Shown here: in pieces, positions 1,181-48,365 of the stretch
Layout: each line of letters opens with the position of its first letter
Position numbering within the stretch: the stretch's first letter is position 1
Notes under the pieces: model-generated
What the model was told of the DNA's origin: nothing
Databases searched by the model: none
The model's input: only the letters and a program-made list of their open reading frames with translations
Assembly (NCBI GenBank): GCA_038503065.1
Contig: JBCAMK010000002.1
Coordinates: 2,914,001 to 2,978,000, forward strand
Direction: 5' to 3'
Length of the DNA stretch: 64,000 nucleotides
Source: Paragyromitra xinjiangensis
Lineage: Eukaryota > Ascomycota > Pezizomycetes > Pezizales > Discinaceae
Program-made: the position numbers and the translations under genes

Positions 1181-1425
1181 CATCAGCAAAAACAAACGAC
1201 ATTCCTCTGTGGCCTATTTGACCTCTGTGGCCTATTTGGCTCCTATTTGGCCTCTGTGGCCTCTGCAGAGGTCAACATTCCTCTGTGGAGGTTTCCGAGG
1301 AAATTTTGATATTTTCCTCTGCAGAGGCCACAGAGGCCACAGAGGTCCAAATAGGAGCCAAATAGGTCACAGAGGTAAGAACATGATCCTAATTTCAAAT
1401 AGGTCATTTTTTGTTCTTGCTGATG
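1181..1425. mobile_element. TIR element M1 (245 bp, CATCAGC termini)
   Basis: It starts CATCAGCAAAAACAAACGAC and ends ...TTCTTGCTGATG, inverted termini matching seven other elements in this window. The interior is built from repeats of CCTCTGTGG and CCTATTTGG in both orientations and would fold on itself. It has no coding capacity. By eye it is the same sequence as M2 (10633-10877) in the opposite orientation and of the same length, which suggests recent movement. The flanks are CA on the left and TA on the right, and they belong to different parts of the LINE, so this copy has been through a rearrangement. Confidence 0.85.
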
Positions 1426-1833
1426 TAGTATTATGTGCATGGGGAGAAAGTTGTGCATGTTGAGGTAAGTGTGTGTTGTAGGTGTGTGGTTGGCGTAGAT
1501 GTTTGAAATTTCAATGTCACCTATGGCTGTGGTGATTATGATTGATATAACGTTGTTGAAAAAGGAAGTTGATATTCGTGGATTCAGGTTCATGTTTGCG
1601 TTTATGTAGGTGACGCATTTGGGATTTTGGTTCGTTGGTGAAAAGCGATGGAAGTTTGTGATGTTTGGTGGTAGGCCTTGGGTTTCTGACCATGGGTCTT
1701 GTAGTGCGAGTATGGCAAGTTGGGTGTTGTTGTTTGCATGATGGAGTACTGAGAGGGTGGAGGCCTTTCCTTTAGCGCAATTCAGTTGTTGCACTTGGGC
1801 TATGCCTGTAGTCTGTGTTGTGTGTTTAATCAT
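1426..1833 (-). pseudogene. LINE ORF2 N-terminal fragment
   Basis: The ATG at 1833 overlaps the ORF1 stop by 8 nt (ATGATTAA on the minus strand). The frame reads MIKHTTQTTGIAQVQQLNC...LQDPW...NPKCVTYINANMN, the start of an APE-type endonuclease. It breaks at the M1 boundary, just before the catalytic GDFN segment. Reading on into M1 adds only about 40 unrelated residues. An upstream in-frame start at 1866 also exists, but overlap restart is more consistent with the other copies. Confidence 0.75.
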
Positions 1834-3265
1834 TACGGTTGTTGATTTTTTGTGCGCGTTGAGCAAGATAGAGTGCTCTGGTCTTCATTTTTTCGGGACA
1901 GTCAATGGCGGTGTGTTGGTTGGTGTTGCAGCAGGCGCACCTAAGCGGCATGTGTGTGCATCTGGCGCCACCTTTGCATGTGATTTGGTCGCATTTGTGG
2001 TCTTTGGTGTGGTGAGCAAGTGCGCAGATGGCACAGGCAACTTCTTGTTTGCAGGTGGCGTCGTGGTGTCCCAATTTTTGACAGTTTCGGCATTGGGTGG
2101 TGGGGTTGATTGGATGGTATTCACGGATTTTGCAAGTAGCATTTAGGATGTTGAGGTAGGTGAAGCCTAGGGTTTTGAGAGTGTGTCTGGCTGGCAGGGC
2201 GATGACGATGGAGGAGGCTTTTTTGCCGATACGTTTTTCTTCTGTGGAAAGCCATCTTGGGGCTTGGGCTAATTGTACATCAGGTAGGGCGGCTTGGAGG
2301 GCATTGGTGATGGTGGTGGGTGTGACGGGTTCGAGGTTGAAGTTGAGTGGGACAGCGTCGATGATGAATTTTGACCATCTGCTGTTGATTCTGAGGTTGG
2401 TGATTGGAATTTTAAGGAGGTTGCATGCTGAGGTGATTTCATGTTCATATTGTTCGATGAATTTGTCAGCTGCTTCATTAGGTTTGGTGGTGAGGATGAG
2501 ATTGTCGTTGTTGGTTTTGCGAACGGCTAGGATGCATGTATTAACGGCTCCTAGTCGGTTGTTGATAGCGTTGAGTATGGAATCTGGGGTGGCTGATGTT
2601 GGAAGGGGTTCGGTAAGTTCAAGTATGATTTCTCTCTTATCAGTGGTGAAATCAGGCTTGTATAATGGTTGGATTTTTGGGGTTTTGCGATTGCCAGTGG
2701 TGACGGTGGTGAAGTTACTTTCGCTGGGTGCTGTTGTGGCTTTGCTGGCGTAGGTTTCTTGTGCTTTGTTGGTGGTGTTGGAAGGTTTGCTGGTGTTTGT
2801 GGTGGGAGGTTTGTTGTTTGCGGCAGTAGTGTTGGTGTTGGCGCTTTGGTTGGTTTGAAGGTGTAGGAGTCTGGCATCTAAAGAGCGGACGGTGTTTTGG
2901 AGGGAGATGTTCTGAGCTTTGATTTCCGCGAGTTTGGAGGTGGTGTTTGTATTTTGGATGTTGTTGAACTTGATTTGTGCTAGGAGGGTGTCCATTTGTC
3001 TCTCAAATTCATCCTTCATTGAGTTAAATTGGCTCTGAATGAACCAGGCGAGATAGTTGGTGGTGGTGGCATTGGTCATGTTAGCCATTTCTTCAGCGGG
3101 GATTTGTGTGAAGTTGAGGTTGGAGTTGAATTCCTGGCCTCCGACGCTTTCATTGTCGTCGTGTTCACTGGAAGAGCTGCTGTGGTTGGAGGCGGGTTTG
3201 TCTTCCATGGGGAGATCTGTGGGATCAAAAGCAGAGAGGGCAGTGCTGCCTTCGGGTGCAGACAT
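1826..3265 (-). CDS. LINE ORF1 protein (gag-like, RRM plus CCHC knuckles), 479 aa
   Basis: This is the ORF1 protein of a non-LTR retrotransposon, expected to bind element RNA and form the ribonucleoprotein used in target-primed reverse transcription. The start MSAPEGSTALSAFD matches the starts used in L4, L5 and L6. An acidic/serine stretch (SSSSSEHDD) and a probable coiled coil near residues 75-125 are followed by an RRM-like region starting near REIILELTEPLP (about residue 210). Three Cys/His knuckles follow near residues 395-455, including CRNCQKLGHHDATC and CACCNTNQHTAIDC. The frame is open throughout, but the element it belongs to is broken in ORF2. Confidence 0.85.
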   Translation of the reverse strand: MSAPEGSTALSAFDPTDLPMEDKPASNHSSSSSEHDDNESVGGQEFNSNLNFTQIPAEEMANMTNATTTNYLAWFIQSQFNSMKDEFERQMDTLLAQIKFNNIQNTNTTSKLAEIKAQNISLQNTVRSLDARLLHLQTNQSANTNTTAANNKPPTTNTSKPSNTTNKAQETYASKATTAPSESNFTTVTTGNRKTPKIQPLYKPDFTTDKREIILELTEPLPTSATPDSILNAINNRLGAVNTCILAVRKTNNDNLILTTKPNEAADKFIEQYEHEITSACNLLKIPITNLRINSRWSKFIIDAVPLNFNLEPVTPTTITNALQAALPDVQLAQAPRWLSTEEKRIGKKASSIVIALPARHTLKTLGFTYLNILNATCKIREYHPINPTTQCRNCQKLGHHDATCKQEVACAICALAHHTKDHKCDQITCKGGARCTHMPLRCACCNTNQHTAIDCPEKMKTRALYLAQRAQKINNRND

Positions 3266-10632: not shown

Positions 10633-10877
10633 CATCAGCAAGAACAAAAAATGACCTATTTGAAATTAGGATCATGTTCTTACCTCTGTGACCTATTTGG
10701 CTCCTATTTGGACCTCTGTGGCCTCTGTGGCCTCTGCAGAGGAAAATATCAAAATTTCCTCGGAAACCTCCACAGAGGAATGTTGACCTCTGCAGAGGCC
10801 ACAGAGGCCAAATAGGAGCCAAATAGGCCACAGAGGTCAAATAGGCCACAGAGGAATGTCGTTTGTTTTTGCTGATG
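10633..10877. mobile_element. TIR element M2 (245 bp)
   Basis: It begins CATCAGCAAGAAC and ends GTTTTTGCTGATG, with the same interior as M1 but inverted. It interrupts L3 ORF2 exactly between FFPP... and ELPKNWLPPPL, which are adjacent in L5, so this is a clean insertion. The flanks show a 2-bp duplication AA (10631-10632 and 10878-10879). It has no ORF of its own. Confidence 0.9.
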
Positions 10878-12001: not shown

Positions 12002-12377
12002 CATCAGCAAAAGGTTTGGATTTCCGCCCAGTGCCATTTTATGTAATCCCCATTCGCCCAGAGGAGATATCAGAAATCCCGTTAGTGCATTGGAATCAGC
12101 TCATCAAACTGCATATTCCCACGCGGGGCTTAGCAGGATCGGATGAGGTTTAACCTTCCATCTTACATCCTGAATATCAAGTTTTCAGGCTTAAAATCGT
12201 GATATTCAGGATGTAAGACCGAAGGTTAAACCTCATCCGATCCTGCCAAGCCCCGCGTGGGAATATGCAGTTTGATGAGCTGATTCTAATGCAATATCGG
12301 GATTTCTAATATCTCCTCTGGGCGAATGAGGATTACTTAAAATGGCACTGGGCGGAAATCCAAACCTTTTGCCGATG
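12002..12377. mobile_element. TIR element M3 (376 bp foldback)
   Basis: The termini are CATCAGCAAAAGG and CCTTTTGCCGATG. The two halves are near-perfect inverted copies of about 180 bp each around a short centre near 12190, so a single strand would form a long hairpin. It lies in L3 ORF2 with a 2-bp duplication TC (12000-12001 and 12378-12379). Its interior is unlike M1/M2; only the outer ~12 bp are shared. Confidence 0.9.
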
Positions 12378-18389: not shown

Positions 18390-18800
18390 CATCTGCAAAA
18401 AAAGATATTTGTCTTCTGGACCTTCAGATGGAATATGGCCTTCTGGAAGGTCCTGAAAACCCAGAAGACTAAATCTCACTGGAAGACAAAAAACATGTTA
18501 CCGGATTGGGTTGAATGATAACATCAACAGTGAAAAATTGTCTTCCAGTGAGATTATGTCTTCAGGGCCTTCAGTGTCTTCCAGAAGGCCATATTCCATC
18601 TGAAGGACAGAAAGACAATTTTTCACTTTTGATATGTTATCATTCAGCCAAATCTGGTAACATATTTTTTGTCTTCCAGTGAGATTTTGTCTTCAGGGTC
18701 TTCAAGGTCTTCCAGAAGACAAATATCTTTTTTTGCTGATAGAAACTGATGGCCCTGAAGACATAATCTCACTGGAATACAATTACTTTTTTTGCTGATG
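18390..18800. mobile_element. TIR element M4 (411 bp)
   Basis: The left end is CATCTGCAAAAAAAG and the right end CTTTTTTTGCTGATG. A second, internal right-type end (TCTTTTTTTGCTGAT) lies at about 18723-18738 and mirrors the left end, so the right terminus is duplicated or two copies are fused. The interior alternates CTTCCAGAAG, CTTCAGGGCC and CCAGTGAGAT in both orientations. A core near 18498-18522 (GTTACCGGATT...TGAATGATAACAT) is shared with M6 but no other M element. The flanks TA/CA give an imperfect 2-bp duplication. This is the only M element here in host rather than transposon DNA. Confidence 0.75.
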
Positions 18801-29563: not shown

Positions 29564-30985
29564 TTATTTATTTATTTATTGTTCATACTCGCATGCATCC
29601 GAAATGGATATGGTGTACAGCAGAAGAAAACCCAACAGGAACATAAAAGAAAACAAAACAAAACTAACTAATCCTCCACCAGTTCCAACTCAGCCTCTTC
29701 TAGGCTTGTCATCAGTGAATGTGTTAATACCCCAATCTAGTGACTCCCTCTCACAGTGTCAAGACTACCCTGGGCATTCTTCCTTTACCATCGCTTGCTT
29801 TGTGCCTATAGCACTCCTTCCACCAGGTCCAAAGACCACTGAAGGTTGGATACATCAATAAGGGTGGGGTGTAACTTAAGTTACCGTGCGATCCTGACGT
29901 TCGCTGGCACTAAGTCTGGCTTGGGTGAGTTTGAGGCAACCAGAGAAGTTACCACGATGCGGTTCGTTACAGTTCTTGCAACGGATGATGGTGTGGAGGC
30001 AGGGAGCTCCCTTGATGGTGCAAGAGGAGGTTGCGCAGGAGTGGGAGGATGCTGTATGAGGCCCAGCACAGATGTTGCAGAAGGGTGTCTTGCTGGTACA
30101 GCGTTGTTGTGGGTGGCCAAAGGCCAGGCAGGTAGTGCATTGGGTGTCTGGTCCAAAGCGAAGGTATTTGGTGACTTTGTGGCGAAGTCCAAACATGGAG
30201 AGCCCTCTCTCAAGGGCAGTGGTGGCAGGCTGCTTCCCCACAATGGTGAGAACCATGGAGGATGCCTGTTTCCCCTCTCTCTGCTCAGGTCTGGTGAGCC
30301 AGCGGGGGTCGCGGAGTAGGGTGGTGCCTGGGATGAACTGCTCAACCTCAGATCTGATTTGCTGGAAACCCTCTTCGCCAGAGGGGATGGAGGTGGGAAT
30401 GTTGTGCACAACAACTTGGGTCAGGACTGCTTCCTTCTCCATGCTGTTGGCATTGGGAATGGTGTTGCGAATAACTTCCTCAAGCTTCTGTCTTTGCTTA
30501 AGGAGGGAGTCAGAGGTGGTGGAGGTGACAGCAATGAGCTGCACATGGTGCATCAGCAAAAAAAATTGTTGCCCCGACACTTTCCTGTCTTCTGGAAGGC
30601 TATATTCCGCCCGCTGCGTTTGTGGCCTTCCCGATCGCCTAGGCGAGCTGCTCCAAGCGCTAGCCTGTGTGGGCGCGGGCTGCACAGCGCTCCGGCCTCC
30701 AGGCGCTCGGCTGCAGCTTATCTTTGAATACCCGCACCTGGATGTGGCACTTAGCAAAATCCAGCAAGCTGCCGAATCGATTTTTTTTTTTCTCTAAGTC
30801 CCTGGAACCTCGGGACTTAGCAAAATTCACCTCACCTCCCCCAGGCACTTAGCGATGGTCAAAAATCTCCAGGTCGTGTAGTCATCGCTGAGTCGTTGCC
30901 AAAGCAACGCCTAATAAGACACCAATCTCCACCTCTCCCATCATCAGAAAAAAAAAAAGTGGCACCCAGTGCCTCTAAAGGATAT

Positions 30986-31036
<51 letters not shown>

Positions 31037-33259
31037 TATTTCATACTGGATAAATCCGAATCGGATATGGCATACATATAGAGAAAACCAAACAGAAAAC
31101 AAAATCAAAACACAACTAACTACCCGATTCCTCCCACAGGGTCCAACTCAGCCCTCTACGGCTATTCTTCAGTTTATGTGTTAATACCCCGATCTAGTGC
31201 CCTCTCTCACAGGACAAGACTACCCTGGGCATTCTTCTTTCACCAGCACATGCTTTGTGCCTATAGCACGTCCCTCCAACAATCCGAGCACTGTCAAGGG
31301 AGATGAAGTCGTAAGGGTGGGGGGAGACTTAGATTTGCATGCGATTCTGTCTTTCGCTTGCAGCTAGTCTTGCTGCTGTGAGTTTGAGGCACTCAGGGGA
31401 GTTACCACGATGTTGTTTGCCACAGTTGGCGCAGCGGAGGATGGTGTGGAGGCAGGGAGATCCTTTGACATGGCAGGAAGGTTTGCCGCAGGTGTGTGTT
31501 GATACTGTATGAGGCCCAGCACAGATGGTACAAATAGGGGTCTTGCTGGTACAGTGCTGTTGGTCGTGGCCAAAGGCCAGGCATTGGGTGCATTGGGTGT
31601 CCTGTCCAAAGCGAAGGTATTTGGAAACCTTGAGGCGGTGTCCGAAAAGGGAGAGCCCTCTCTCAAGGGCAGTGGTGGCAGGTTGTTTCCCCTGGATGGT
31701 CAAAACCATGGAGGAAGCCTGCTTGCCCTCTCTCTGCTCTGGTCTGGTGAGCCAGTGAGGGTCGCACATGAGGGTAGTGCCAGGGTTGAACTGTTCAACC
31801 TCTGACCTGATGTGTTGGAATCCTTCTTCGCCAGAAGGAATAGAGGTGGGTACGTTGTGCAGAACAACCTGGAAGAGAGTGACCTCTTTCTCCAGGCTGT
31901 TGGCATTGGGGATGGTGGATTTCACAATCTCCTCAAGCTTTGATCTCTGTTTGTGGAGTGTGTCGGAGGTGGTGGTGGTGACAGCAATGAGCTGCACATG
32001 GTGAGCAGGTGTGAATTGCACCTCTGCAATGAATGGGCTTTCTAAGCCTGCATTGACTGCATTGCAAATGGTGAGTGGGGTAACATCCTCAGGAATGGGT
32101 AGACCATTCCTGGTAATGATGAGGGTGCGGTCGCGCTTGGGAGGGTTGGTGGGTGGTTTGGGGGCCTTGGTGGCCTTGGTGGCGGGTCTGGGGGCCTTTT
32201 TAGAGGCAACCTGAGCCCAGGAGTGTGGTGCAGGTGTTGGGGCAGCTGCTGGAGGTGGGGGAAGGTTGGCTGTAGAGAGAATGCTAGTTAAAGCACGTTT
32301 CTGCTCCAAGTCTGCCACCTTGGTTGTGAGAGTTGCTACTTTTTCCACAAGTGCTGGGTCGTTGTGGATGGTAGGGGGAGGTGGGGGGTTCCTGGCTGCC
32401 TTCTGGAGGCGTCTGATTTCTCTCTCCAGTTGCTTCACATAGAGGCGATACTGGTGGAGGTCTCTGGCGATTTGGATCACAGCATCTGCGATCTTGATGG
32501 TGGTGTTGAGGGTGGAAGCCACGAAATCATCCATGCTCTCATGCTCAGACTCAGACTTTATCATCTCATGGTCTTGAGAGTCAAGAGGGAGTGGGAGCGA
32601 CTCATAGTCCTGAAGGGCAACAGCAGGACGCAGTGGGAGGGTCTGGGTTGGTGTCTGCTTTGGATCTCCATGGTGGAGAGCAGAAAGTCGCGAATTGGGG
32701 TGTGTGGTAGGTGCTGTGGGTGTTGTGGGGGTGGTGAAGGGCGAAATTGCGCCAGGAGAGGGAGACTGAAAGCCTCTGCCTCTCCCTCTGCCTCTGGATA
32801 ACACGTACACCACCACCGACAACAACAACGCCAAAGTGACTTTTTGGTCACAACTCCACCAATTCTACTCCGATTAACGAGATTTTTGATTATTCGGAAT
32901 CAGCTCGCTGCCCTCGTTCGATCCTGCTATTGTACGTCGAGGTTGCTCTCGATTTGCAAAAGTTGTTGTCGAATTCGCTGTTTTACCCCTCTTTTCCCCC
33001 CCAACAACAAAAACCTCACCAAACTTTGGCAATCTGCATTTTGTCATAACTCCACCAGTTTTCGTCCGATTAGCTCGACCCCGGGCTTTTTGGAACCGCC
33101 TCAGCGCGCCCGTTCGATCGCCCTCTCGTTCGCTCGGATCCGACCAGAACTGCAGAAGTTCTGCTCGATTTCCCACCCCCCTCCGCCAGGGACCCCCTCC
33201 AGGGCCCAGCAACCCCCCAACACACCCTACTTCCTCCTGTCGGTTCAGGACCCTTCTCT

Positions 33260-35855
33260 ATGTCTTCCTCTTCGTCTGGAGGCAGAGGGAGAGGCAGAGG
33301 CTTCAGGTCTCCCTCTTCTGTGAATTCACCCCAAAACCCGCTCCAAACGCCTTTTGGCGCCCCTACAACACCCCCAAACACCCGTTTTTCACCTCTGCTC
33401 CATGGAGACCCAGAGCAGACACCTACACAAGCCCTGCCACTTCGCCCAGCAGTCCCCCTACCTCACTATGCCTCCCTGCCCGCCACAGACCCCACTGGTA
33501 CAGACAGTGGGTCTGTTCTCTTGGAAGAGTCTGACTCTGACATGACGGACACTGAGGGACCCCTCACCTTTTCCACCACCCTACCTCCAGTCATCCAGAT
33601 GGATGATTCTAACAGCAATTTGGATCGCCTTGGTGCCATTGGTACTGGGGAGAACTACAACCCCTCCCTCTTCGCAGTGATAGATGAGCAGAACAGGCTC
33701 ATCAAGGCTGTAAGACCGGTACTTCGCACCACTACTGAATTCTAAGCGAAGCTTTAGATAGCTCTCTAGACTCTGTAACTCGACTGGCTACTATCCGTAG
33801 CCCAATACCCGAGCGCACGTCCTGACAACTTCTTATGAACCGCACAAAGGCAACGATAGTTTAAGCGAGATAAGGGTCAGGGCTGTTCCGTTGAAAGAAC
33901 TTTCTCAATAGGAAGGACACGAGTGTTGAAGCGCGAAGCTATGCTAAACAACTCGATACAATGGAGAATTTATTACGGAACAAAGTATGTTGGTAACAAA
34001 ATAATATTGATAAGGCTCGTTCTTCTTCGATGATGATCGAGGAAGAATTGACGTCCAATGCAAGAGTATTTATATCCCGTCCTCTTTACTACTGTGTGTT
34101 CTTTGTAGCTTGGGTCGACGGACTAAACTATCTACTATTACAATTTGAACTAACTCGCTTATCCATTTATCCGACATCCTATCGGCGTAGCCGATATCTC
34201 CAACTTCCGACGCTTACCCCTCGTTCAGTAATCCTCAGATCGCCTCGGTTCGACGTGGCGATGATACGGTTGCGACGGTTGCGTTCGCCCGATCGAGTAG
34301 GTGGTTACACGATATCGTTTTGTTGCGACAGCTGGTGTTTGGAGCCCCATAGCGTGGGCAGGAGACCTCTGATGACTAATCCGAATAGCCCACGTGACTC
34401 GGCGCCCCAAGTTGCCCTATGAAGACCTCTCATACATACCCTCCGGGTCACGTTCCGCGGGAAGGGCGCCGTTGACGACCAAAGGGTTACTTTTAGTCTC
34501 CGGGACGCGGATATTTTGCGGGTGTCCCCCCTTCTCGATCCACTCGCTGCTGAAGGCAGGGTAACGGCCGGGTAACCGGGGAAGGCAGGGTAACTGCCTG
34601 GGAATAGGCTGGGGAGGCCAATATCACAACAGGCAGCCACAGAGGGGTCCAACGAAGACGGGAAGGTGACCAAATGGAAGGTAGGGTAACTCCCTACGTA
34701 GGTAGGGTAACAGGGAGACCACTGCACGCCTATAGCCATAGGTATAACAAGGCACTCACCAAACGCGTCAAGCAGCTTGAAAAAGCTATCCTTACACCCC
34801 CAGCAGCCCCTACCTTCCACAATGACCCAGCTCTAGTGGAAAAGGTAGCCACCCTCACCTCCAAGGTTGCAGACCTGGAACAGAAACGGACACTCACAAC
34901 AATTCTGACCTCTGCCAACCTCCCCCTACCTCCAGCACCTGCTCCTCCGCCAGCTACCACCTCCTGGGCTCAGGTTGCCTCTAAAAAGGCTTCCAGACCC
35001 GCCAACAAGGCCCCAAAGCCTTCCAAACAACCTACAGCGCCTCCAAAACGTGACAGAACCCTCATTATCACCAGGAATGGTCTACCCATTCCTGATGACA
35101 TCACCCCACTCCTCATTCGCAATGCAGTCAATGCTGCCCTGGAAAGGCCATTGATTGCAGAGGTGCGATTCACTCCTGCCCCCCATGTGCAGCTCATTGC
35201 TGTTACCTCCACTACCTCTGACTCCCTCCTCAAGCAAAGACAGAAGCTTGAGGAAGTTGTTCGCACCACTATTCCCAATGCCACCAGCATGGAAAAGGAA
35301 GCCATCCTTACCCAAGTTGTTGTGCACAATGTCCCCACCTCCATCCCCTCGGGCGAAGAGGGATTCCAGCAGATCAGGTCTGAGGTTGAGCAGTTCAACC
35401 CAGGCACCACCCTACTCCGCGACCCCCGCTGGCTCACCAGACCTGAGCAGAGAGAGGGGAAACAGGCATCCTCCATGGTTCTTACCATTGTGGGGAAACA
35501 GCCTGCCACCACTGCCCTTGAGAGAGGGCTCTCCATGTTTGGACTTCGCCACAAAGTCACCAAATACCTTCGCTTTGGGCCAGACACTCAATGCACCACC
35601 TGCCTGGCCTTTGGCCACCCACAACAACGCTGTACCAGCAAAACCCCTTACTGCAACATCTGTGCTGGGCCACATACAGCATCCTCTCACTCCTGCGCAA
35701 CCTCCTCTTGCACCATCAAGGGAGCTCCCTGCCTCCACACTATCATCCGTTGCAAGAACTGTAACGAATCGCATCGTGGTAACTTTTCTGGTTGCCTCAC
35801 ACTCACTCAAGCAAGACTTAGGGCCAGCGAACGTCAGGATTGCATGGTTGTTTAA
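33260..35855 (+). pseudogene. ORF1-like protein of G6, split by the LTR
   Basis: MSSSSSGGRGRGRGF from 33260 runs to 33708 in frame (MDEQ changed to IDEQNRLIKA), is broken by the LTR, and resumes at 34754 with LTKRVKQLEKAI to the stop at 35855. All domains of the family follow, with knuckles CTTCLAFGHPQQRC, CNICAGPHTASSHSC and CKNCNESHRGNFSGC. Without the LTR it would equal the 516-aa G8 protein with few changes. Confidence 0.88.
33709..34749 (+). mobile_element. Solo LTR (about 1.04 kb)
   Basis: It begins TGTAAGACCGGTACTTCGC and ends CCATAGGTATAACA, TG...CA ends. It splits the G6 gag gene with (A)AGGC on both sides (33704-33708 and 34749-34753), a 4-5 bp duplication. No coding domains are present. 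A longer relative is at 37803-40521. The duplication, TG/CA ends and absence of internal genes fit a solo LTR left by recombination; orientation is undetermined and shown as plus by convention. Confidence 0.85.
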
Positions 35856-37059
35856 GTTTTTCCCTACCTGTTATGATTTAACCAGCCTTCAGGGGTCTTA
35901 GGATTCAGTGGAAGGAGGGCTATAGGCCCAAAACATGCGATGGTGAAGGGAAAAGGAACAGGTTGAGATCTTCGGGTAGTCACTTGTCTTTCCTTATCAT
36001 ATTAACTGACGATGAGCCTGAGAGAGGCTGAGATGGAACTGGTGGAGGGTTTAGTTAGTTTTTTTTGTTTCTTTTCGTTCCTGTTGGGTTTTCTCTTATT
36101 GTACGCCATATCCGATTCGGATGCATGCAAGTATGAACAATAAATAAATAAAATAAATAAATCTGCCTCTGGATGAAGAGGAAGACATGGAGGGGGTTCA
36201 TGAACCGACAGGAGGAGGTAGGGTGTATGGGGGGTCCCGGGCGGGGGGGAGGGGTTGGGAGGAGCAGGAAGTGTCAACAACTTCTGCAAATCTGCTCCGA
36301 TCCGAACGAACGAGAGGGCGATCGAACGGCGTGCTGTGGGGAGTCCAAAAAGCCTGGGGTCGAGCTAATTGGACGAAAACTCGTGGAGTTATGAGGTCTT
36401 GCAAGATCTCGAGATTTGAGGTGTAGGGGGTGAAAGAGGGGTAAAACAGCGAATTCAACAACCACTTTTGCAAATCGAGAGCGATTTCGATGTGCAATAG
36501 CAGGAATGAACGAGGGCAGCGAGGCGAGTCCGAATAATCAAAAAGTAGCGCAATCGGAGTAAAACTGGTGGAGGTGTGACCAAAAAGTCACTTTGGCGTT
36601 GTTGTTGTCGGTTCCAAATTTGTGCCTCTGAAGGAATGTGGCCTTCCAGAAGATCAGGATGCACTGGGTGCCAAAATGATACTGGGTGCCAAAAATATTG
36701 TTACCGGATTAGGCTGAATGATAACATACTAAAAGTGAAAAATTGCACCTGGTACTTCTGAAGGAATGTGGCCTTCCAGAAGATCAGGATGCACCTGAAG
36801 ACCAAAACACACTGGGTGACAATTAATTTTTTTGCTGATGGTCCTTCCTACTATTGCTTCCCCCTATTCCCTCCCACCCATCCCCTATTCCTCCACCCAT
36901 CCTCTATTCCCTCCCACCCATTCTCAACCTCGCTGTACCACTGACATGGTGACATTTAAGTGCGAAGCAACGAGCTCTGCTTGCAAAGAACCTCCCAGGT
37001 AACGTCTCGATTCCGTTTATTTGACTCCCGCTGATATGCCTCCTAGACTCGCTTTGATC

Positions 37060-37802: not shown

Positions 37803-40521
37803 TGTAAGACCGGTACTTCGCACCACTACTGAATTCTTAGCGTAGCTTTAGATAGCTCTCTAGACTCTGTAACTCGACCGGCTACTATCCGTAGCACAAT
37901 ACCCGAGCGCACGTCCTGACAACTTCTTATGAACCGCACAAAGGCAACAATAGTTTGAGCGAGATAAGGGTCAGGGCTGTTCCGTTGAAAGAACTTTCTC
38001 AATAGGAAGGACACGAGTGTTGAAGCGCGAAGCTATGCTAAACAACTCGATACGATGGAGAATTTATCACGGAACAAAGTATGTTGGTAACCAAATAATA
38101 TTGATAAGGCTCGTTTCTCAGGGAGCGAGGTTTCGTCAAGCCCTTCGGTATCCCCAAAGGTGAGCAGTGCTACTTGAAAGAGACTTCGCTACAATGATAA
38201 TACAGTGTTTTCCACAGGCCTCACGTAGGGTAAGAATCGAGGTGATTCTGGGGGGTCACAGCGACAGCGACGATGATGTTTCTGAGGTAGAAACAGAGAT
38301 GATATTTCTATAACAGTAGGGTAGAAGTAAAGTAAGAAAGGTAAAGGTAAAGTATTTTATTTCGCACTGAAGCAACTAAATGCTTATGGCGCACCAACAC
38401 ACTACGACTAACTACAGTAATTATGGTACACTACTAACCGCACATCGCGTTACAGCGCAGGCCATCATCGTAGCTCCCCCGAGAGAAAAAAAACAACATA
38501 AACGTAGGAGAAAAGGAAATCCAGCCACGGAAACCCAAAACCTACACCACAGAATACAAACAACTCAACTTACTACAGTACCTATGGTCCGAGTACCAAC
38601 CGCACATCCCGTTACAGGGCAGGCCAAAAGAAGAGAAGCGACGTCAAGGAGGGGAGTCTGGAACACTGGCGAAGTGTTAGACTGTTTGTCGAGAATGATT
38701 TTTGACCAAGAGCGAAGGTTGGTCGGCGATAGGGTGAGGGAGTAAACTCCCTCGGTAATAGCGGGTGGTCTTCTGGTTTAAAGTCCCAGCGTGTCCTCTA
38801 ATGACTGGAATGGTTTAAGGTCTGCTTGCGACCATATCGATGAAGGGTGGGATTGAAGTATCCCAACTGAGGAGGGGTAGGTCATGAGTGACCACGGCTG
38901 TAGGAATGTATGAGACTAGCTAAGACCGCTAAATACGATCAAAAAAAGGTACTATGATAGACATGTCATAGTAGTCTCAGCGAAGAAGTGAAATTGCAGA
39001 TTGAGTCCAAATACGATCCCATGGGTACTATGATGGAAAACAAAATGCAAGAAGGGGAAACGAAGAAAGGTAGACCACACAGACGAACTGGTGTGGCGCA
39101 GTGGATGGGGTGAGTTAACCGAGGTTAACTCAGCGGGGATGGGGTGACGTGTCATGCGGCAAATGCCGTGACTTGTCAGGGTCAAACGGGTTCCCTCAAC
39201 ACCAAGGTGAGAGGGGATCGAAGATGGGGTGAGAGAAAGGACGCGAACGTTTCTCTCGTGTAGACGGGGATGGAGAATAGTTAAATTCTCCGTTCAAACG
39301 GGGATGGATTCACGTAGTGAATCCTGTTGTAATGGTACCACTCTGGCGAAACGAATGAACGATTCGTGAGTGGTGTTGAGGCGTGGTTGTGATCGCTTAA
39401 CACAGGAACATCGTGAGTTTGATGGCAACACTTCAACAGTGACCAGAGGTGATATCGACGTTGACAGAACGCTCAAACGACGGAGAAAACGGTGGGATAG
39501 TAGAAGCAATCCTTTAGCGAAAAGGTACTATCATTGAGGAGGGAGAAGTTCAGGCGTGAACTTCCTCACGAACGCGCGCCCGAAGGTTTGCGTCGCGGAG
39601 AGAAGAAGAAACGTTGCTTAAGGAAAGAAAGAAAAGAACAATCACAATCGCGGAAATCCATCGCTTATATACCCAATCTTCCCCTTTCTATGACTCATCC
39701 ATGACTCAACCATTCAAGGCAACCCAACCGAATCACAAAGAAACACAACGAAATAATACAATGACTAATCCTTAACACCGCACCTGTGCCTGACCCTATC
39801 CATGATATTGTTCTTCCTCGATGATGATCGACTCAGAATTGACGTCCAATGCAAGAGTATTTATATCCCGTCCTCTTTACTACTGTGTGTTTTTTGTAGC
39901 TTGGGTCGACAGACTAAACTATCTACTATTACAAATTGAACTAACTTGCTTATCCATTTATTTGACATCCTATTGGCGAAGCCGATATCTCCAACTTCCA
40001 ACGCTTACCCCTTGTTCAGTAATCCTCAGATCGCCTCGGTTTGACGTGGCAATGATACGGTTGCGACAGTTGCGTTTGCCCGATCGAGTAGGTGGTTACA
40101 CGATATCGTTTTGTTGCGACAGCTGGTGTTTGGAGCCCCGTAGCGCGGGCAGGAGACCTCTGATGACTAATCCGAATAGCCCACGTGACTCGGCGCCCCA
40201 AGTTGCCCTGTGAAGACTTCTCATACATACCCTCCGGGTCACGTTCCGCGAGAAGGGCGCCGTTGATGACCAAGGGGTTACTTTTAGTGTCCGGGACGCG
40301 GAAATTTTGCAGGTGTCCACCCTTCTCGATCCAGCACTGCCAGCAGTGCAACCGAAGGCAGGGTAACGGTCGGGTAGCCGGGGAAGGCAGGGTAACTGCC
40401 TGGGAATAGGCTGGGAAGTCAATAGGCAGCCACAGAGGGGTCCAACGAAGACGGGAAGGTGACCAAATGGAAGGTAGGGTAACAGGGAGACCACTGCACG
40501 CCTATAGCCATAGGTATAACA
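37803..40521 (+). mobile_element. Long LTR copy (about 2.7 kb) of the same family
   Basis: It shares its first ~310 bp (TGTAAGACCGGTACTTCGC...) and last ~710 bp (...GGTATAACA) with the solo LTR at 33709, but has about 1.7 kb more between 38121 and 39810. It is flanked by TCGCT on both sides (37798-37802 and 40522-40526). Either the short copy is a deletion at a GTT microhomology, or this copy carries an insertion. The extra segment shows no pol or gag motif and contains a palindrome GAGTTAACCGAGGTTAACTC at about 39111-39130. Confidence 0.75.
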
Positions 40522-40525
40522 TCGC

Positions 40526-40960
40526 TGCCTGAGCCTCTGCAGCCTCCTGGAGGTCATCGATCCGCTGCCTGAGCTTCCTCCGCCTCCGCCAATTGGTCAA
40601 TTCGCTGCCGCTGCCTCTGCTGCCTCTGCCATATGGTCAATTTGCTGCCTGAGCCTCTGCAGCCTCCGCCATATGGTCAATTCGCTGCCTGAGCTTCTGC
40701 CGCCTCCTGGAGGTCGTCGATCCGCTGCCTGAGCTTCCTCCACCTCCGCCATATGGTCAATTTGCTGCCTGAGCTTCCTCCTCCTCCGCCAATTAGTCAA
40801 TTCGCTGCAGCAGCCTCCCCTGCCTGCGCCATATGGTCGATCCGCTGCCTGAGCTTCCGCCGCCTCAGTCAATTGATCAATTTGCTGCAGCAGCTTCCGC
40901 TGCCTGCGCCATATGGTCAATTCGCTGCAGGAGCCTCCACTGCCTCCACTCCCCTCCCCT
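40526..40960. repeat. Second half of the M5 tandem array
   Basis: This continues the CATATGG/TCGCTGCC array beyond the LTR. One TCGCT unit was used as the LTR target. Confidence 0.8.
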
Positions 40961-41585
40961 CTACTCCTTGGATATGAAGAACAGATACATGTACATATAG
41001 AGCTATATAGAAATAATAGAACAATTGTAAACAAGCAGATGGGCAAAAGCATTCAAACTAGACCACAAGGTGACCTGCTGAAAATGTGATTCTGTGGGTG
41101 CACTGCTCTCCCCCTGCTGTCTTCCAGACGCTCGTCTACCCTCCGTGGCCGCCCAGAGAATAGCCTCCTGAACCTAGCGCGCCCCCATCCCGACCTCTAG
41201 TAAGCTGTCGCCCAGACGTGAAGGGCAAAATTTACAGCCTGAGGGAGGGCTATATTCCGCCCTGACCGCCCCAGTCGCCTGATGCATTGGGCGGACCGGG
41301 CGACAATCAATTTTTTTGCTGATGTAGGCTGGTGTGAATCGCACCTCTTCAATCAATGGCCTTTCCAGGGCAGCATTGACTGCATTGCGAATGAGGAGTG
41401 GGGTGATGTCATCAGGAATGGGTAGACCATTCCTGGTGATGATGAGAGTACAGTCGCGTTTTGGGGGGTTTGCTGGTGTTTTGGTAGGCTTGGAGGCCTT
41501 GCTGGCGGGTCTAGGAGCCCTTTTAGAGGCAACCTGAGCCCAGGAGGTGGTGGCTGGTGGGGGAGGTGGGGGGAGGTTGGCAGAG

Positions 41586-43117
41586 CATCATCAAAAATTG
41601 ATAAAGCTACCCCTGCCGCCTGGAGGTCTAGGTGGTCAGGCGGAATGTTACCCTTCTGTTAGGTTGCTGCAACATCTCGGCGTGCCCTAGAGCCATGGTT
41701 TCTAGACCTTTGACCGCCGGGAAGAGGTCGTTTCCTCCTGTAGCAAGTGGTGCAGTGGGCTGCTTCTGGATGCGTGTGGTCCCTCGCTGCCGCAGGATTT
41801 TGGCAGCAGTTCGCCCTGTAGAATGGATTTCTATAGTAGGGCCTGGAATATTCGGGAATCACTTGTATGGTGGAACCAATATCATTTACAATTGCTTTAT
41901 TCTATGTATCTATCTATATATCTATGTACAAATATCCAGGGCACAGCTAAACTGGCTTCTGTGGAAGCTGCAGCAGTGAGTCGACGACCTGCCAGAGGCA
42001 GGCAGCAAATTGACCTATTGGCGCAGGCGCAGGCTCAGGCTCAGGCTCAGGCACCGGATCGACCATATGGTGCAGGAAGCAGAAGCTCAGCCAGCGAATT
42101 GACCTATTGGTGCAGGCTCAGGCGCAGGCGCAGGCTCAGGCAGCGGATCGACCATATGGCGCAGGAAGCGGAAGCTCTGGCAGTGAATCGACCTAAGGGC
42201 GCAGGCTCAGGCTCAGGCAGCAGAGGCTGCTGCAGCGAATCGATCAATTGGCTGAGGCAGTGGAAGCTCAGTCAGTGAATTGACCTATTGGCGCAGGCAG
42301 CGAATTAATCAATTGACTAAGGCTGCGGAAGCCCAGGCAGCAAATTGACCATATGGCGGAGGCTGCATAAGCCCAGGCAGCGAATCAACGACCTCCAGGA
42401 GCTGGCGAAAGCTCAGGAAGCTCAGGCAGCAGATCGACTTTATGGCGGAGGCTGCAGAGGCGGAGGCAGCGAATCGATCAGTCAATTGAGCTGTCTCCTG
42501 AGCTCGCTTAGGTTGAAGCAGCGAAGGAGGCAGCCGGCGGAGGCAGAGGAAGCTGAAGCAGCGGATCAAAGCGAGTCTAGGAGGCATATCAGCGGGAGTC
42601 AAATAAACGGAATCAAGACGTTACCTGGGAGGTTCTTTGCTAGCAGAGCTTCGCACTTTGAGCCTAAAAGTCACGTTGTCAGCGGTACAGTGAGGTTGAG
42701 AATGGGTGGGAAGGAATAGGGGGAAGCAATAGAAGGAAGGACGGGAAGGAATAGGGGGAAGTGGAGATTGCTGTCTTACTAGGCGTTGCTTTGGCGACGA
42801 CTAAGCGATGACATGGCGACTACAAAGTGATGACTAAGCAACTTCCAGATTTTTGAAAATCGCTAAGTGCCTGGGAGGCGAGTGTATTAAATTTTGCTAA
42901 CTCCCAAGTTTTCAGGGACTTAAAAAAATTTGATCCAAAATTTGCTAAGTACCCAAGCTGCCACCCTGCGCTGCCCGATGGTAGGAGGTCGCCTGAAAGC
43001 GTTGCAGGCAGCAAGTGCCGCCTGGGGAAATTGCAGCAGGCAGCAAGTGGCGCCCGGGCATGGCAGGCGGTTGGGTGGAATATGTACCTATTGGGCGCAA
43101 TTTTTTTTTTGCTGATG
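41586..43117. mobile_element. TIR element M7 (1.53 kb)
   Basis: The left end is CATCATCAAAAATTG (one change from consensus) and the right end AATTTTTTTTTTGCTGATG. It splits the G4 gag gene between ANLPP and the T-rich coding part, with a 3-bp duplication GAG (41583-41585 and 43118-43120). The interior holds a reversed version of the M5 array (CTCAGGC, CGGATCGACCATATGG) and, near the right end, a block inverted relative to M5's left end (AAGCAACGCCTA...). It is M5's closest relative and an uninterrupted guide to its structure. Confidence 0.87.
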
Positions 43118-45239
43118 GAGGTCAGAATGGTTGTAAGGGTCCGTTTCTGTTCCAGGTCTGCAACATTGGAGGTGAGGGTAGCCACCTTTTCCACTAGAGC
43201 TGGGTCGTTGTGGAAAGTAGGGGCTGGTGGGTGTATTGATGGCTTTTTCAAGCTGTTTGACGCGTTTTGTGAATGCTTTGATGAGCCTGTTCTGCTCATC
43301 CATCACTGCGAAGAGGGAGGGGTTGTAGTTCTCCCCAGTGCCAATGGCACCAAGGCGATCCACCATTCGCGATACCAACAACAACAACGCCAAAGTGACT
43401 TTTTGGTCACAACTCCACCAATTCTACTCCGATTAACGAGATTTTTGATTATTCGGAATCAGCTCGCTGCCCCCGTTCGATCCTGCTATTGTACGTCGAA
43501 ATCGCTCTCGATTTGCAAAAGTTGTTGTCGAATTCGCTGTTTTACCCCTCTTTTCCCCCCTACACCTCAAATTTTGAGAATTTGCAAAACCTCATATCTC
43601 CACCAATACTACTCCGATTGGCTCGACCCCGGGCTTTCTGGAGTCCCCTCACTGTGCCCGTTTGATCGCCCTCTCGTTCGTTCGGATCGGAGCAGATTTG
43701 CAGAAGTTGTTGACACTTCCTGCTTCTCCCACCCCCTCCCACTTCGCTAGGGACCCCCCCAGGGCCCCACAGCAACACCTCCCATACACCCCACCTCCTC
43801 CTGTCGGTTCAGGACCCCTATATGTCTTCCTCTTCGTCTAGAGGCAGAGGGAGAGGCAGAGGCTTCAGGTCTCCCTCTTCTGTGACCAGCTCACCCCAAA
43901 ACTCGCTCCAAACACCCTTTGGCGCCCCTACAACACCCCCAAACACCCGATTTTCGCCTCTGCTCCATGGAGACCCAGAGCAAACACCCACTCAAGCCCT
44001 GCCACTTCGCCCAGCAGTCCCCCTACCTCACTATGCCTCCCTGCCCGCCACAGAGCCCACAGAGAGTGGCTCTGTCCTGCTGCAAGAGTCTGACTCTGAC
44101 ATGACGGACACTGAGGGACCCCTCACCTTTTCCACCACCCTACCTCCAGTCATCCAGATGGATGATTCTAACAGCAATTTGGATTGCCTTGGTGCCATTG
44201 GTACTGGGGAGAACTACAACCCCTCCCTCTTCACAGTGATGGATGAGCAGAACAGGCTCATCAAAGCACTTACAAAACGCGTCAAACAGTTTGAAAAAGC
44301 CATCAATACACCCCCACCAGCCCCTACCTTCCACAACGACCAAGCTCTAGTGGAAAAGGTGGCTACCCTCACCTCCAAGGTAGCAGACTTGGAACAGAAA
44401 CGGACCCTCACAACCATTCTGACCTCTGCCAACCTCCCCCTACCTCCAGCAACTGCTCCCCCGCCAGCCACCACCTCCTGGGCTCAGGTTGCCTCAAAAA
44501 GGGCTCCTAGACCCGCCAGCAAGGCCTCCAAACCTACCAAAACACCAGCAAACCCCCCAAAACGCGACCGTACTCTCATCATTACCAGGAATGGTCTAAC
44601 CATTCCTGATGACATCACCCCACTCCTCATTCGCAATGCAGTCAATGCTGCCCTGGAAAGGCCATTGATTGCAGAGGTGCGATTCACACCAGCTCACCAT
44701 GTGCAGCTCATTGCTGTCACCTCCACCACCTCTGACTTCCTCCTTAAGCAAAGACAGAAGCTTGAGGAAGTTATTCGCAACACCATTCCCAATGCCAACA
44801 GCTTGGAGAAGGAAGCAGTCCATCAGCAAAAAGCCCGGTCTGCGTCCAGTCGCGCCTAGAGCAGTAGGCGCACTGGGCGCACTGGGCTCGGATTTTTTTT
44901 AGGCACTGCGTTAGGCGCATCGTCTAGTATGGCGTACGTCTGGGCGCGCTGGGCGTGCTGGACATAGGACCTGCCTCGTCCACGCCCAGGCGCAGGCCTG
45001 GAAAATCCGAGCCTGACATACTGGACGTACAGCCTCCCATGGGTGCATTGGGCGCATTGGGCGTACGATGTCACGCTGCTTGTCACGCTGCTTTGTATGG
45101 CACTAAAAGTCTATTCTGCTCTATGTACATGTAGGACGCAATTCCACCCATTATCTTGCTTCCACTCTGATCCAGCTGCCTCCAAATCGACTCCCAAGCA
45201 ACCTCCCAAGCAGCCTCCGAGTCAGCTGTCTGCCTGCCT

Positions 45240-46030
45240 CTGAATTGACTCACGAATTGACTCCTGAATTGACCCTGAATCGGCTGTTTCTGAGCCTCCA
45301 AATCCTGCTGAATCCACTGCCGAATTGACTCCTAAATAGACTCCGAATCGGCTGTTTCTAAGCCTCCGAATCGTGCTGAATTGAATGCCGAATAGACTCC
45401 CAAATAGACTCCGAATCCTGCTGAATTGACTGCCGAATAGACTCCCAAATAGACTCCGAATCCTGCTGAATTGACTGCCGAATTGACTGCCGAATAGACT
45501 CCCAAATAGACTCTGAATCGGCTGTTTCTAAGCCCCCGAATCCTGCTGAATCCACTGCTGAATTGACTCCTCAATCGAGTCCGAATCGGCTGTTTCTAAG
45601 TCTCCGAATCCTGCTGAATTGACTCCCGAATAGACTCCGAATCCCGTGCTTTCCTGCCTCCGAATAGGCTGTTTCCGAGCCTCCGAATCCACTGCCAAAT
45701 TGACTCCTGAATTGACTCCTGAATTGACCCGAATCGGCTATTTCTGAGCCTCCGAATCCTGCTGAATTGACTGCCGAATTGACTCCTGAATAGACTCCGA
45801 ATTGGCTGTTTCCGAGTCTCCGAATCGACTCCTGAATTGACTGCTGAATAGGCTCCTGAATAGACTCCGAATCGACTCCCGAATAGGCTCCGAATTGACT
45901 GCGGAATAGGCTCCTGAATAGGCTCCTGAATAGACTCCGAATTGGCTGCTCAATAGACTCCGAATTGACTCCCGAATTGACTCCGAATCGGCTGTTTCTA
46001 AGCCTCCAAATTGACTCCTGAATTGACTCT
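45240..46030. repeat. Satellite of GAATTGACTCC-type units in M8
   Basis: Tens of degenerate 11-12 bp units (GAATTGACTCCT, GAATAGACTCC, GAATCGGCTGTTTC) in tandem. Long ORFs across it on the minus strand are translation artefacts. Confidence 0.85.
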
Positions 46031-46254
46031 ATAGTACAGCATGTTAGCACAGTCGATTGACAGGTAAGAAGTGGGGATTGGAGAGGTGGGGCAAGCGGGA
46101 GGTGGAGAGGGGGGAGGGGGAGAGGTGGGAGGCGAGCAGGAGGTGGGGTGTGTGGTTGATATAAGGGAATTGCTGGCGGAAGGCGCGTGTGAGGTCATGA
46201 TGAGCCTAGGAGGTTCAGGTAACCGAGGGTTAGGGTTTCGACTTGGCTGAATTT

Positions 46255-46625
46255 GCGGCCAGGAGACAGTATATGGGCGCATGGGCGTATGATAGAGCAA
46301 TTGGGCTGCGCAAGGGCGTATGTGGGCGCATGGGCATATGATAGAGTGGTTGGGCGTATGATAGAGCGATTGTATGGGCCTACTAGGCGTCTATGCATGC
46401 TGAGGCGAGCAATAGAGCAAGCGTATGGGCGCATAGGCGTATGTGGGCGTGTGGGCGTGTGGCCGTGGGCGTATGTGGGCGCATGGGCGTATGGACGTAC
46501 TAGGGCGAGCTATAGAGCAAGCGTATGGCCGTACTAGGCATACCAACGTGCTGGGGCGAGCAATAGAACGAACGTATGGGCGTACTAGACTTATGGACGC
46601 AGCTGGACGCAAGCAGGCGTACTGA
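46255..46625. repeat. Satellite of GGGCGTATG-type units in M8
   Basis: Repeats of GGGCGTATG, GGGCGCATG and ATAGAGCAA/ATAGAGCGA. It lies just inside the M8 right end, the position where CACTA-type elements carry transposase-binding subterminal repeats. Confidence 0.8.
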
Positions 46626-48365
46626 GCGTTGGGGCCACGCCCAGGTTCTTGCCCATCGCGCCCAGGCGGGCATCCCTTTTTGCTGATGTCCTGACCCAAG
46701 TTGTTGTGCACAACATTCCCACCTCCATCCCCTCTGGCGAAGAGGGTTTCCAGCAAATCAGATCTGAGGTTGAGCAGTTCAACCCAGGCACCACCCTACT
46801 CCGCGACCCCCGCTGGCTCACCAGACCTGAGCAGAGAGAGGGGAAACAGGCATCCTCCACGGTTCTCACCATTGTGGGGAAGCAGCCTGCCACCACTGCC
46901 CTTGAGAGAGGGCTCTCCATGTTTGGACTTCGCCACAAAGTCACCAAATACCTTCGCTTTGGGCCAGACACCCAATGCACTACCTGCCTGGCCTTTGGCC
47001 ACCCAGAACAACGCTGTACCAGCAAGACACCCTTCTGCAACATCTGTGCTAGGCCTCATACAGCATTCTCCCACTCCTGCGCAACCTCCTCTTGCACCAT
47101 CAAGGGAGCTCCCTGCCTCCACACCATCATCCGTTGCAAGAACTGTAACGAACCGCATCGTGGTAACTTCTCTGGTTGCCTCAAACTCACCCAAGCCAGA
47201 CTTAGTGCCAGCGAACGTCAGGATCGCATGGTAACTTAAGTTACACCCCACCCTTATTGATGTATCCAACCTTCAGGGGTCTTCGGACCTGGTGGAAGGA
47301 GTGCTATAGGCACAAAGCAAGCGATGGTAAAGGAAGAATGCCCAGGGTAGTCTTGACACTGTGAGAGGGAGTCACTAGATTGGGGTATTAACACATTCAC
47401 TGATGACGAGCCTAGAAGAGGCTGAGTTGGAACTGGTGGAGGATTAGTTAGTTTTGTTTTGTTTTCTTTTATGTTCCTATTGGGTTTTCTTCTGCTGTAC
47501 GCCATATCCGTTTCGGATGCATGCGAGTATGAACAATAAATAAATAAATAAATAAATAAGCACCAAGGCGATCCAAATTGCTGTTAGAATCATCCATCTG
47601 GATGACTGGAGGTAGGGTGGTAGAGAAGGTGAGGGGTCCCTCAGTGTCCGTCATGTCAGAGTCTGACTCTTCCAGGAGGACAGAGCCACTCTCTGTGGGC
47701 TCTGTGGCGGGCAGGGAGGCATAGTGGGATAGGGGGACTGCTGGGCGAAGTGGCAGGGCTTGGGTAGGTGTTTGCTCCGGGTCTCCATGGAGCAGAGGCG
47801 AAAAACGGGTGTTTGGAGGTGTTGTAGGGGCGCCAAAGGGCATTTGGAGCGAGTTTTGGAATGAGCTAGTCACAGAAGAGGGAGACCTGAAGCCTCTGCC
47901 TCTCCCTCTGCCTCTAGACGAAGAGGAAGACATAGAGGGTCCTGAACCGACAGGGAGAGGTGGGGTGTATGGGGGGGTCCCTGGCGGGTGGGAGAGGGTG
48001 GGAGCAGGAAGTGTCAACAACTTTTGCAAATCTGCTCGGATCCGAACGAACGAGAGGGCGATTGAACGAGCACAGTGAGGGGACTCCAGAAAGCCCGGGG
48101 TCGAGTCAATCGGAGTAGTGTTGGTGGAGATATGAGGTTTTGCAATATCTCAGGATTTGGTGTGGTTTTTGGGAAAAGAGGGGTAAAATAGCGAATTCGA
48201 CAACAACTTTTGCAAATCGAGAGCGACCTCGACGTACAATAGCAGGATCGAACGAGGGCAGCGAGCTGATTCCGAATAATCGAAAATCTCGTTAATCGGA
48301 GTAGAATTGGTGGAGTTGTGACCAAAAAGTCACTTTGGCGTTGTTGTTGTCGGTGTGCCTTGCAC

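What the first reader, a model, noticed from the sequence alone, without database searches (positions are those of the whole stretch)
1181..46688. Eight elements share only a ~12-bp terminus (CATCAGCAAAAA) and have unrelated satellite or foldback interiors
M1-M8 all end in CATCAGC plus an A-run, or a near variant, in inverted orientation. Seven lie inside retroelements, where uninterrupted copies prove the borders for most. Target duplications are 2-3 bp: AA, TC, TC and GAG are exact, while TG/TA, AT/GT and TA/CA differ by one transition. Interiors differ completely: CCTCTGTGG repeats, a 180-bp hairpin, CTTCCAGAAG blocks, a CATATGG array, and GAATTGACTCC plus GGGCGTATG arrays. Known CACTA/EnSpm-type elements have 2-3 bp duplications, CA-type ends and subterminal repeats bound by transposase, so each M type may be a non-autonomous satellite-bearing derivative with its own subterminal code. 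A family this uniform at the tips and diverse inside is unfamiliar to me and may be undescribed.
Basis: partly seen in the sequence, partly recalled or inferred. Interest (0 to 1): 0.88.

Follow-up and report, generated by a model that had tools for sequence, protein, structure and literature searches.

The report
Fungal Plavaka transposons that swap ends
The eight elements look like short passenger copies of a known kind of fungal DNA transposon (Plavaka), and some of them carry the same satellite-rich middle under different ends, as if the passengers had changed drivers.

Summary
CATCAGCAAAAA occurs 356+332 times in the genome against 1+2 for the backwards control, and 44 of 60 hand-paired inverted pairs have an exact 2-bp target duplication (shuffles). 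It is not undescribed: CATCA..TGATG ends with 2-3 bp duplications are the published signature of PlavakaB, a CACTA-like fungal group (PMC12730594, passages). Three 9.1-9.3 kb elements here have such ends and contain Plavaka transposase. Only M6 and M7 could be tied to one of these by their ends; the rest rest on termini and duplications.

"Uniform tips, unrelated interiors" is partly reversed. Beyond about 12 bp the ends are family-specific. M6 and M7 share a satellite core, M4 and M5 are related, and M5 is a ~247-bp element split by a retroelement. Across three end families the unique core differs by 12-15% on average and the outer parts by 49-67%; within families both differ by 4-14%. So non-autonomous elements seem to have changed ends while keeping the core, as CORE-SINEs change tails. 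I found one precedent, the coral CMITEs (PMC2872659, passages). How the ends were exchanged is inferred.

The parts
1181..1425 (+). M1: 245-bp non-autonomous element, type T1 (CCTCTGTGG repeats, palindromic interior)
   Evidence: 40 scored matches in the genome at 98-100%, 39 over 1-245 and one over 1-242; flanks rearranged, no empty site
10633..10877 (-). M2: second T1 copy, duplication AA
   Evidence: uninterrupted copies of equal length, e.g. 300 bp for 300
12002..12377 (.). M3: 376-bp foldback element, type T3, duplication TC
   Evidence: 10 full-length places at 93-100%; uninterrupted copies, e.g. 295 bp for 295
18390..18800 (-). M4: type T4 element (CTTCCAGAAG blocks), 411 bp with an internal inverted copy of its own end at 18741; TA/CA
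   Evidence: no empty site found
30551..30941 (-). M6, piece 1: end of a T6 element (ends of the L019 Plavaka family)
   Evidence: 92% to L036, 80-88% to other T6 elements
30942..30983 (-). M5, piece 1: short end of a ~247-bp T5 element, cut by a retroelement with a TATT tail; right limit approximate
36622..36840 (-). M5, piece 2: positions 1-219 of the T5 element
   Evidence: 99.5% to L030:2775-2557; empty site in other T6 elements, 94% gapless to L036
36841..37802 (-). M6, piece 2: core A (unique part and 40-bp CATATGG satellite)
   Evidence: 70-82% to many T6, T7 and T9 elements, TRF
40522..41324 (-). M6, piece 3: rest of the satellite and the other T6 end; left limit inferred from the repeat at 39810-40521
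   Evidence: empty site of M6, 95.7% gapless at 27239-26940 with 2 bp removed
41586..43117 (+). M7: T7 element, 1532 bp, ends of the L018 Plavaka family, core A interior, duplication GAG
   Evidence: first 92 bp 88% and last 53 bp 92% to L018; 10 T7 elements cover each other fully; empty site
44821..46688 (+). M8: T8 element, 1868 bp, core B (GAATTGACTCC satellite, about 420-1208 of the element), duplication TC
   Evidence: three full-length places at 93-100%; empty site gapless at 94.3%

Best explanation
M1-M8 are non-autonomous DNA transposons of the PlavakaB kind, moved in trans by Plavaka transposases encoded by ~9-kb elements in the same genome. SHOWN: the shared CATCAGC-A(n) tips, mostly 2-bp target duplications, empty sites for six of the eight, three ~9-kb elements with such tips that encode Plavaka, and for M6 and M7 a match of the outer ~50-100 bp at each end to one of two different Plavaka families. 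SHOWN BY DISCORDANCE: elements with the ends of three families (T6, T7, T9) carry one and the same core in the same orientation, and this core is far less diverged between families than the ends are. INFERRED: the transposase recognises the common tip plus family-specific subterminal DNA, and a core-bearing element of the T6 kind was re-armed with T7 and with T9 ends, each probably once, so that it could be moved by another transposase. The likeliest route is template switching during repair of the gap left by excision (copying starts in both ends of one element and continues in a core-bearing one); this route is not shown.
For: Tips and duplications. Empty sites. Plavaka: 125 matches in this genome, 0 of 14 control genomes; L017, L018 and L019 enclose such matches between inverted CATCAGCAAAAA ends, with PF18759 over the cut-off in all four L018/L019 ORFs tested. 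Ends: T7 elements match L018 over 92 and 53-70 bp at 87-97%, T6 elements match L019 over 103 and 82 bp at 87-90%, nothing in between. Discordance: mean difference of the unique core between families 0.120 (T6-T7, 198 pairs), 0.154 (T7-T9, 55), 0.127 (T6-T9, 90) against 0.49-0.67 for the outer parts; within families core 0.069-0.071, outer 0.040-0.136. L018 and L019 transposase ORFs differ at 121 of 225 fourfold sites (193 of 353 with a third, accessory ORF pair). Core tree: T7 one clade 99/99, lying among T6 rows (94/96); T6 as one side of a branch in 0% of 200 bootstrap trees, AU p 0.011. Published PlavakaB features: PMC12730594 (passages).
Against: For M1-M5 and M8 no autonomous partner with the same ends was found in the sequence I held. 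I saw both ends of only 3 of the elements behind 125 Plavaka matches. The ends of the families keep weak similarity (L ends: GGCGGAAT..ACCCTT), so part of the discordance could be fast evolution of ends rather than replacement. Branches with full support do not force T6 to be paraphyletic, and the root is a midpoint. T9 cores cover only about 180-220 bp. No element with one end of one family and the other end of another was seen among 60 pairs, which gap repair permits but does not predict. T6 autonomous and non-autonomous ends do not share the same top 8-mer. 8 of 60 pairs show no duplication.
Confidence: 0.85

Rival explanations
1. Common descent without exchange: an ancestral core-bearing element existed before the L018 and L019 families split; its ends then changed quickly along with the transposases while the core changed slowly.
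For: Orientation L-core-R is the same in T6, T7 and T9; the ends keep weak similarity; each of T7 and T9 forms one group in the core tree.
Against: Within families the core changes about as fast as the outer parts, so it is not slow. Fourfold sites of the cognate transposases differ at more than half of the sites while cores differ by 12-15%. T7 cores lie among T6 cores.
Confidence: 0.22
2. The core is an independent satellite or element into which different Plavaka ends were captured repeatedly, or satellites spread between elements by recombination of the arrays alone.
For: The left edge of the shared part coincides with the edge of the 40-bp array; core B is found with three kinds of ends, in two of which both ends were seen.
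Against: The unique right part of core A, not only the array, is shared. Whether core A occurs outside elements with CATCAGC ends was not tested genome-wide.
Confidence: 0.2
3. One reading: an undescribed family, uniform at the tips, with unrelated interiors.
For: M1, M3, M8 and the M6/M7 core have no similarity to one another by blastn at 1e-8.
Against: PlavakaB ends and duplications are published. Interiors are shared by M6 and M7 and related in M4 and M5.
Confidence: 0.03
4. The CATCAGC matches are chance or low-complexity artefacts.
For: The motif is short and A-rich.
Against: 688 against 3, empty sites, duplications far above shuffles.
Confidence: 0.01

Closest known systems
PlavakaB DNA transposons (CMCT clade; PMC12730594, passages seen)
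   Same: Termini CATCA..TGATG, target duplications of 2 or 3 bp, Plavaka (PF18759) transposase in the autonomous relatives here.
   Different: The window elements encode no Plavaka; many carry satellite cores, which the passages seen do not mention ('subterminal' has 0 occurrences in that main text). The host here looks like a Pezizomycetes fungus (inference), while the passage on Plavaka reports reconstructions from Agaricomycotina.
Plavaka elements, autonomous and non-autonomous, of Marasmius oreades (PMC8290104, passages; PMC9674265, passages)
   Same: Plavaka TIR motifs characterised and non-autonomous elements defined by duplications and structure in a mushroom genome.
   Different: Shared cores under different ends are not mentioned in the passages seen; the supplementary figure with the TIRs was not seen.
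Coral CMITEs (PMC2872659, passages)
   Same: Non-autonomous elements with different TIRs but an internal region more conserved between families than the TIRs.
   Different: piggyBac-like with TTAA duplications, about 100 bp long with a 75-bp interior; no satellite; only one family had a candidate autonomous partner there.
CORE-SINEs and other SINEs with a shared centre and LINE-derived tails (recalled; PMC3747384 and PMC3272025 seen in a search listing only)
   Same: A shared centre with exchanged terminal parts that fit the partner's enzyme.
   Different: Retroposons, not DNA transposons; only the tail is exchanged there, here both ends are.
CACTA/EnSpm elements of plants with subterminal repeats (recalled)
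   Same: Short conserved tips, 2-3 bp duplications, repeated subterminal motifs, non-autonomous relatives.
   Different: Different transposase group; tips CATCA rather than CACTA.

Membership tests
PlavakaB | Termini 5'-CATCA..TGATG-3' | tested here: met
   All eight elements have CATCAGC or a near variant at both ends (M4, M3 and M7 each have one end with one change in CATCAGC, M5 one end reads CATCAGA); 12-mer 356+332 against 1+2 in the genome
PlavakaB | Target duplications of 2 or 3 bp | tested here: met
   44 of 60 exact 2 bp, 1 exact 3 bp, 7 one transition, 8 none; shuffles. For M1 and M4 themselves not shown
PlavakaB | Plavaka transposase (PF18759) in autonomous members with the same ends | tested here: met
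   L017, L018, L019. Linked by matching ends to M6 and M7 only
PlavakaB | Autonomous partner with the same ends for M1-M5 and M8 | tested here: inconclusive
   None in the sequence held; a candidate region for T5 (L037) has one T5 end only; M8 end matches were compared by position with the listed Plavaka matches and none lay between them
PlavakaB | Transposase groups with PlavakaB rather than PlavakaA in a tree | not tested
   No reference sequences of the two groups were fetched
[quoted passage not shown]
   CPVC and HLLTH are seen in that order in the L018 and L019 ORFs (read by eye); catalytic residues were not aligned to a reference
Non-autonomous Plavaka derivatives | Ends of an autonomous family without its transposase gene | tested here: met
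   For T6 and T7: only 53-103 bp at the ends shared with L019 and L018. Not shown for the other types
PlavakaA | Termini 5'-TGT..ACA-3' | tested here: not met
   Element ends read CATCAGC
CMITE-like elements (shared interior, different TIRs) | Interior more conserved between families than the ends | tested here: met
   (core A, three end families); core B with two end families seen at both ends and a third at one end. piggyBac membership is not claimed

The most novel reading that the evidence does not exclude
A DNA-transposon counterpart of CORE-SINEs: satellite-bearing non-autonomous Plavaka elements persist by replacing both ends with those of another autonomous family, at least twice for core A (T6 to T7 and to T9) and possibly again for core B (M8, L017-like and a third kind of end), so that one passenger body is carried in turn by several transposases with different subterminal codes.
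Probability: 0.5. Interest if true: 0.62.

Novelty: new variant of a known kind. Interest (0 to 1): 0.45.

Why it matters
If right, passengers of DNA transposons outlive any one transposase family by changing ends, which separates what an element carries from what moves it. It also gives a natural comparison for finding what a Plavaka transposase recognises: the same body with different ends, and the same ends on different bodies. For annotation it warns that such elements classified by interior would be assigned to the wrong transposase, and those classified by ends would be split from their relatives.

Tried and rejected
Autonomy of L020: first taken for autonomous by its 9.17 kb length; it has no listed Plavaka match and aligns as a T7 element with about 7 kb inserted. 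Global alignment of ends between families with shuffled controls was uninformative, the gap costs being too lax (controls about 0.7). Rfam gave no match in the window. A search for an autonomous T5 element (L037) found one T5 end only. Partner for M8: no Plavaka match listed between its end matches, judged by position only. M1 as a clean insertion: rejected, its flanks are not collinear with other copies. The other end of the third core B type was not found in L052 and L055, whose similarity runs to the edge of the stretches. Eight Plavaka loci L009-L016 hold too little flank to show both ends; the printed part of the output (cut) shows T6 element sequence beside Plavaka in L012 only, and only its outer ~410 bp. 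Literature: 'CATCAGC' with 'transpos' 29 papers, 20 listed, none by title on this; 'Plavaka' 11 papers, 10 listed; 'Plavaka' with 'satellite' 0; three searches on shared interiors or subterminal satellites 0, one gave 4 papers including the CMITE paper, one on satellites in non-autonomous elements 5 papers, listing only. These cover open-licence papers alone.
Full report
WHAT IS THERE. The window is G000:C2:2914001-2978000 of an unnamed 48.2-Mb genome in 22 contigs. The nearest named relatives of one transposase ORF are from Maublancomyces gigas (63% over 82% of the query), Morchella and Tuber, so the host is probably a Pezizomycetes fungus (inference). CATCAGCAAAA with up to one mismatch occurs 21 times in the window, against a shuffled mean of 2.26 and largest 7. 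CATCAGCAAAAA occurs 356+332 times in the genome, against 1+2 for the backwards control.

BORDERS AND DUPLICATIONS. I paired inverted ends by eye in the window and in fetched loci. Of 60 pairs, 44 have an exact 2-bp duplication, 1 an exact 3-bp one (M7, GAG), 7 differ by one transition and 8 have none. Two mispaired rows were dropped before this count. Against shuffled right flanks: 28 of 45 against mean 5.1 and max 13, and 16 of 17 further pairs against mean 2.6 and max 8. Uninterrupted copies were found for M5, M6, M7 and M8, M3 and M2. A T1 element inside a T5 element on C6 leaves T5 pieces 1-158 and 157-247, a 2-bp overlap. M1 has no such proof, because its flanks are not collinear with other copies, and M4 has none because its flanks are single copy.

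WHICH KIND. Plavaka (PF18759) has 125 listed matches in this genome and none in 14 control genomes. Three elements of 9283, 9076 and 9315 bp (L017, L018, L019) enclose such matches between inverted CATCAGCAAAAA ends with exact 2-bp duplications, and Pfam confirms Plavaka in the four L018 and L019 ORFs tested. In passages of PMC12730594, PlavakaB families have termini CATCA..TGATG and 2 or 3 bp duplications. A tree placing these transposases in PlavakaB was not made.

ANATOMY OF THE EIGHT. M1 and M2 are 245-bp T1 elements; 40 scored genome matches are 98-100% identical, 39 of full length and one over 1-242, so they spread recently (inference). M3 is a 376-bp foldback with 10 full-length places at 93-100%. 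M4 (T4) and M5 (T5) are related at about 75%. T5 has 25 places at 96-100% over all or nearly all of its 247 bp, and M5 is such an element cut by a retroelement. M6 is a T6 element in three pieces, M7 a T7 element. M8 is a T8 element with three full-length places at 93-100%.

ENDS AGAINST CORES. T7 elements match the L018 Plavaka element only in the first 92 bp and last 53-70 bp (87-97%), T6 elements match L019 only in 103 and 82 bp (87-90%). L017-like non-autonomous elements match L017 more loosely (68-73%). Yet T6, T7 and T9 elements share a core of about 1.0-1.3 kb in one orientation, made of a 40-bp satellite and a unique part. On 34 elements, the unique part differs on average by 0.120 (T6-T7), 0.154 (T7-T9) and 0.127 (T6-T9) between families, and by 0.069-0.071 within them. 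The outer left part differs by 0.52-0.54 between and 0.040-0.090 within; the outer right part by 0.49-0.67 between and 0.075-0.136 within. Best blastn stretches of the core, array included, give K2P 0.177-0.202 between and 0.082-0.130 within families (picking the best stretch lowers these). The L018 and L019 transposase ORFs differ at 121 of 225 fourfold sites; with a third, accessory ORF pair 193 of 353, K2P 1.02. So the core is not slow within families, yet far less diverged between them than either the ends or the silent sites of their drivers.

DIRECTION. In a tree of the unique core (34 rows) T7 is one clade (99/99) that lies among T6 rows (94/96) and T9 is one group (94/95). T6 is one side of a branch in 0% of 200 bootstrap trees, and holding it together is rejected with AU p 0.011. 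Against this: fully supported branches alone do not force it, T9 rows fill under half of the columns, and the root is a midpoint. I read it as T6 being the source and T7 and T9 as derived by end replacement, each probably once.

SECOND CORE. M8 shares its GAATTGACTCC core (356-1209 of the element) at 73%, inverted, with elements that have L017-like ends (L029b; L053, L054 and L056). L052 and L055 carry it with a third kind of end, of which only one side was seen.

SUBTERMINAL CODE. In 9 of 13 end sets the commonest 8-mer (one mismatch allowed, both strands) exceeds all 40 dinucleotide shuffles; T6 (autonomous and not), T5 and T3 do not. The motif is shared by autonomous and non-autonomous members in T7 (CGACCGCC) and T17 (CTCC[CA]GGA), also by T1 with L031c and by T4 with T5, but not within T6; T8's motif also occurs 5 times in T7 ends and T9's 5 times in L019 ends. 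This is modest support for a family-specific code.

MECHANISM. Cut-and-paste by Plavaka transposase acting in trans on tip plus subterminal DNA is the standard reading for such elements (established for related groups; not tested here). For the exchange I favour template switching in repair of the excision gap. It would replace the inside between short retained ends at one stroke and would give elements with both ends from one family, as seen: none of 60 pairs combined the ends of two families, one low-scoring end aside. Recombination in the satellite arrays could explain the left border, which falls at the edge of the array, but not the right one alone.

VERDICT. A known kind of transposon, with an unusual relation between bodies and ends that has one precedent that I found, the coral CMITEs (PMC2872659, passages).

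Noticed in passing
window 1031-1577: M1 sits at a junction of two retroelement stretches that are in the opposite order elsewhere (right-flank sequence some 700 bp upstream of the left-flank one), suggesting a rearrangement at or through the element.
   Followed up: partly
window 30984-36621: Retroelement material that splits the T5 element, with a run of TATT at 30983-31037 and about 12-14 bp (TGCCTCT[GA]AAGG) repeated on both sides, as a LINE-type insertion with a target duplication would leave; it holds further nested repeats.
   Followed up: partly
window 37803-40521: A second insertion in M6, sharing 97% with 33709-34021 and 89% with 34019-34749; not identified.
   Followed up: no
L018 4064-5985 region and L019, minus strand relative to the transposase: A second long ORF (640 and 512 aa, 53% identical over 466 positions) opposite to the transposase in both autonomous elements; no family search of it was completed.
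   Followed up: no
L026 1943-1944: Two T8-type ends lie head to head with no base between them.
   Followed up: no
L039 (C14:1383000-1384300): A T5 element lies inside a Plavaka gene and shows no 2- or 3-bp duplication.
   Followed up: partly
L034 1057-1110: A T6 right end begins inside a truncated T6 left end, 28 bp in.
   Followed up: no
window 20483-21748: An ORF of 421 aa with a weak DDE_3 match below Pfam's cut-off (19.5 of 28.6 bits, E 0.00094), perhaps another DNA transposon.
   Followed up: no
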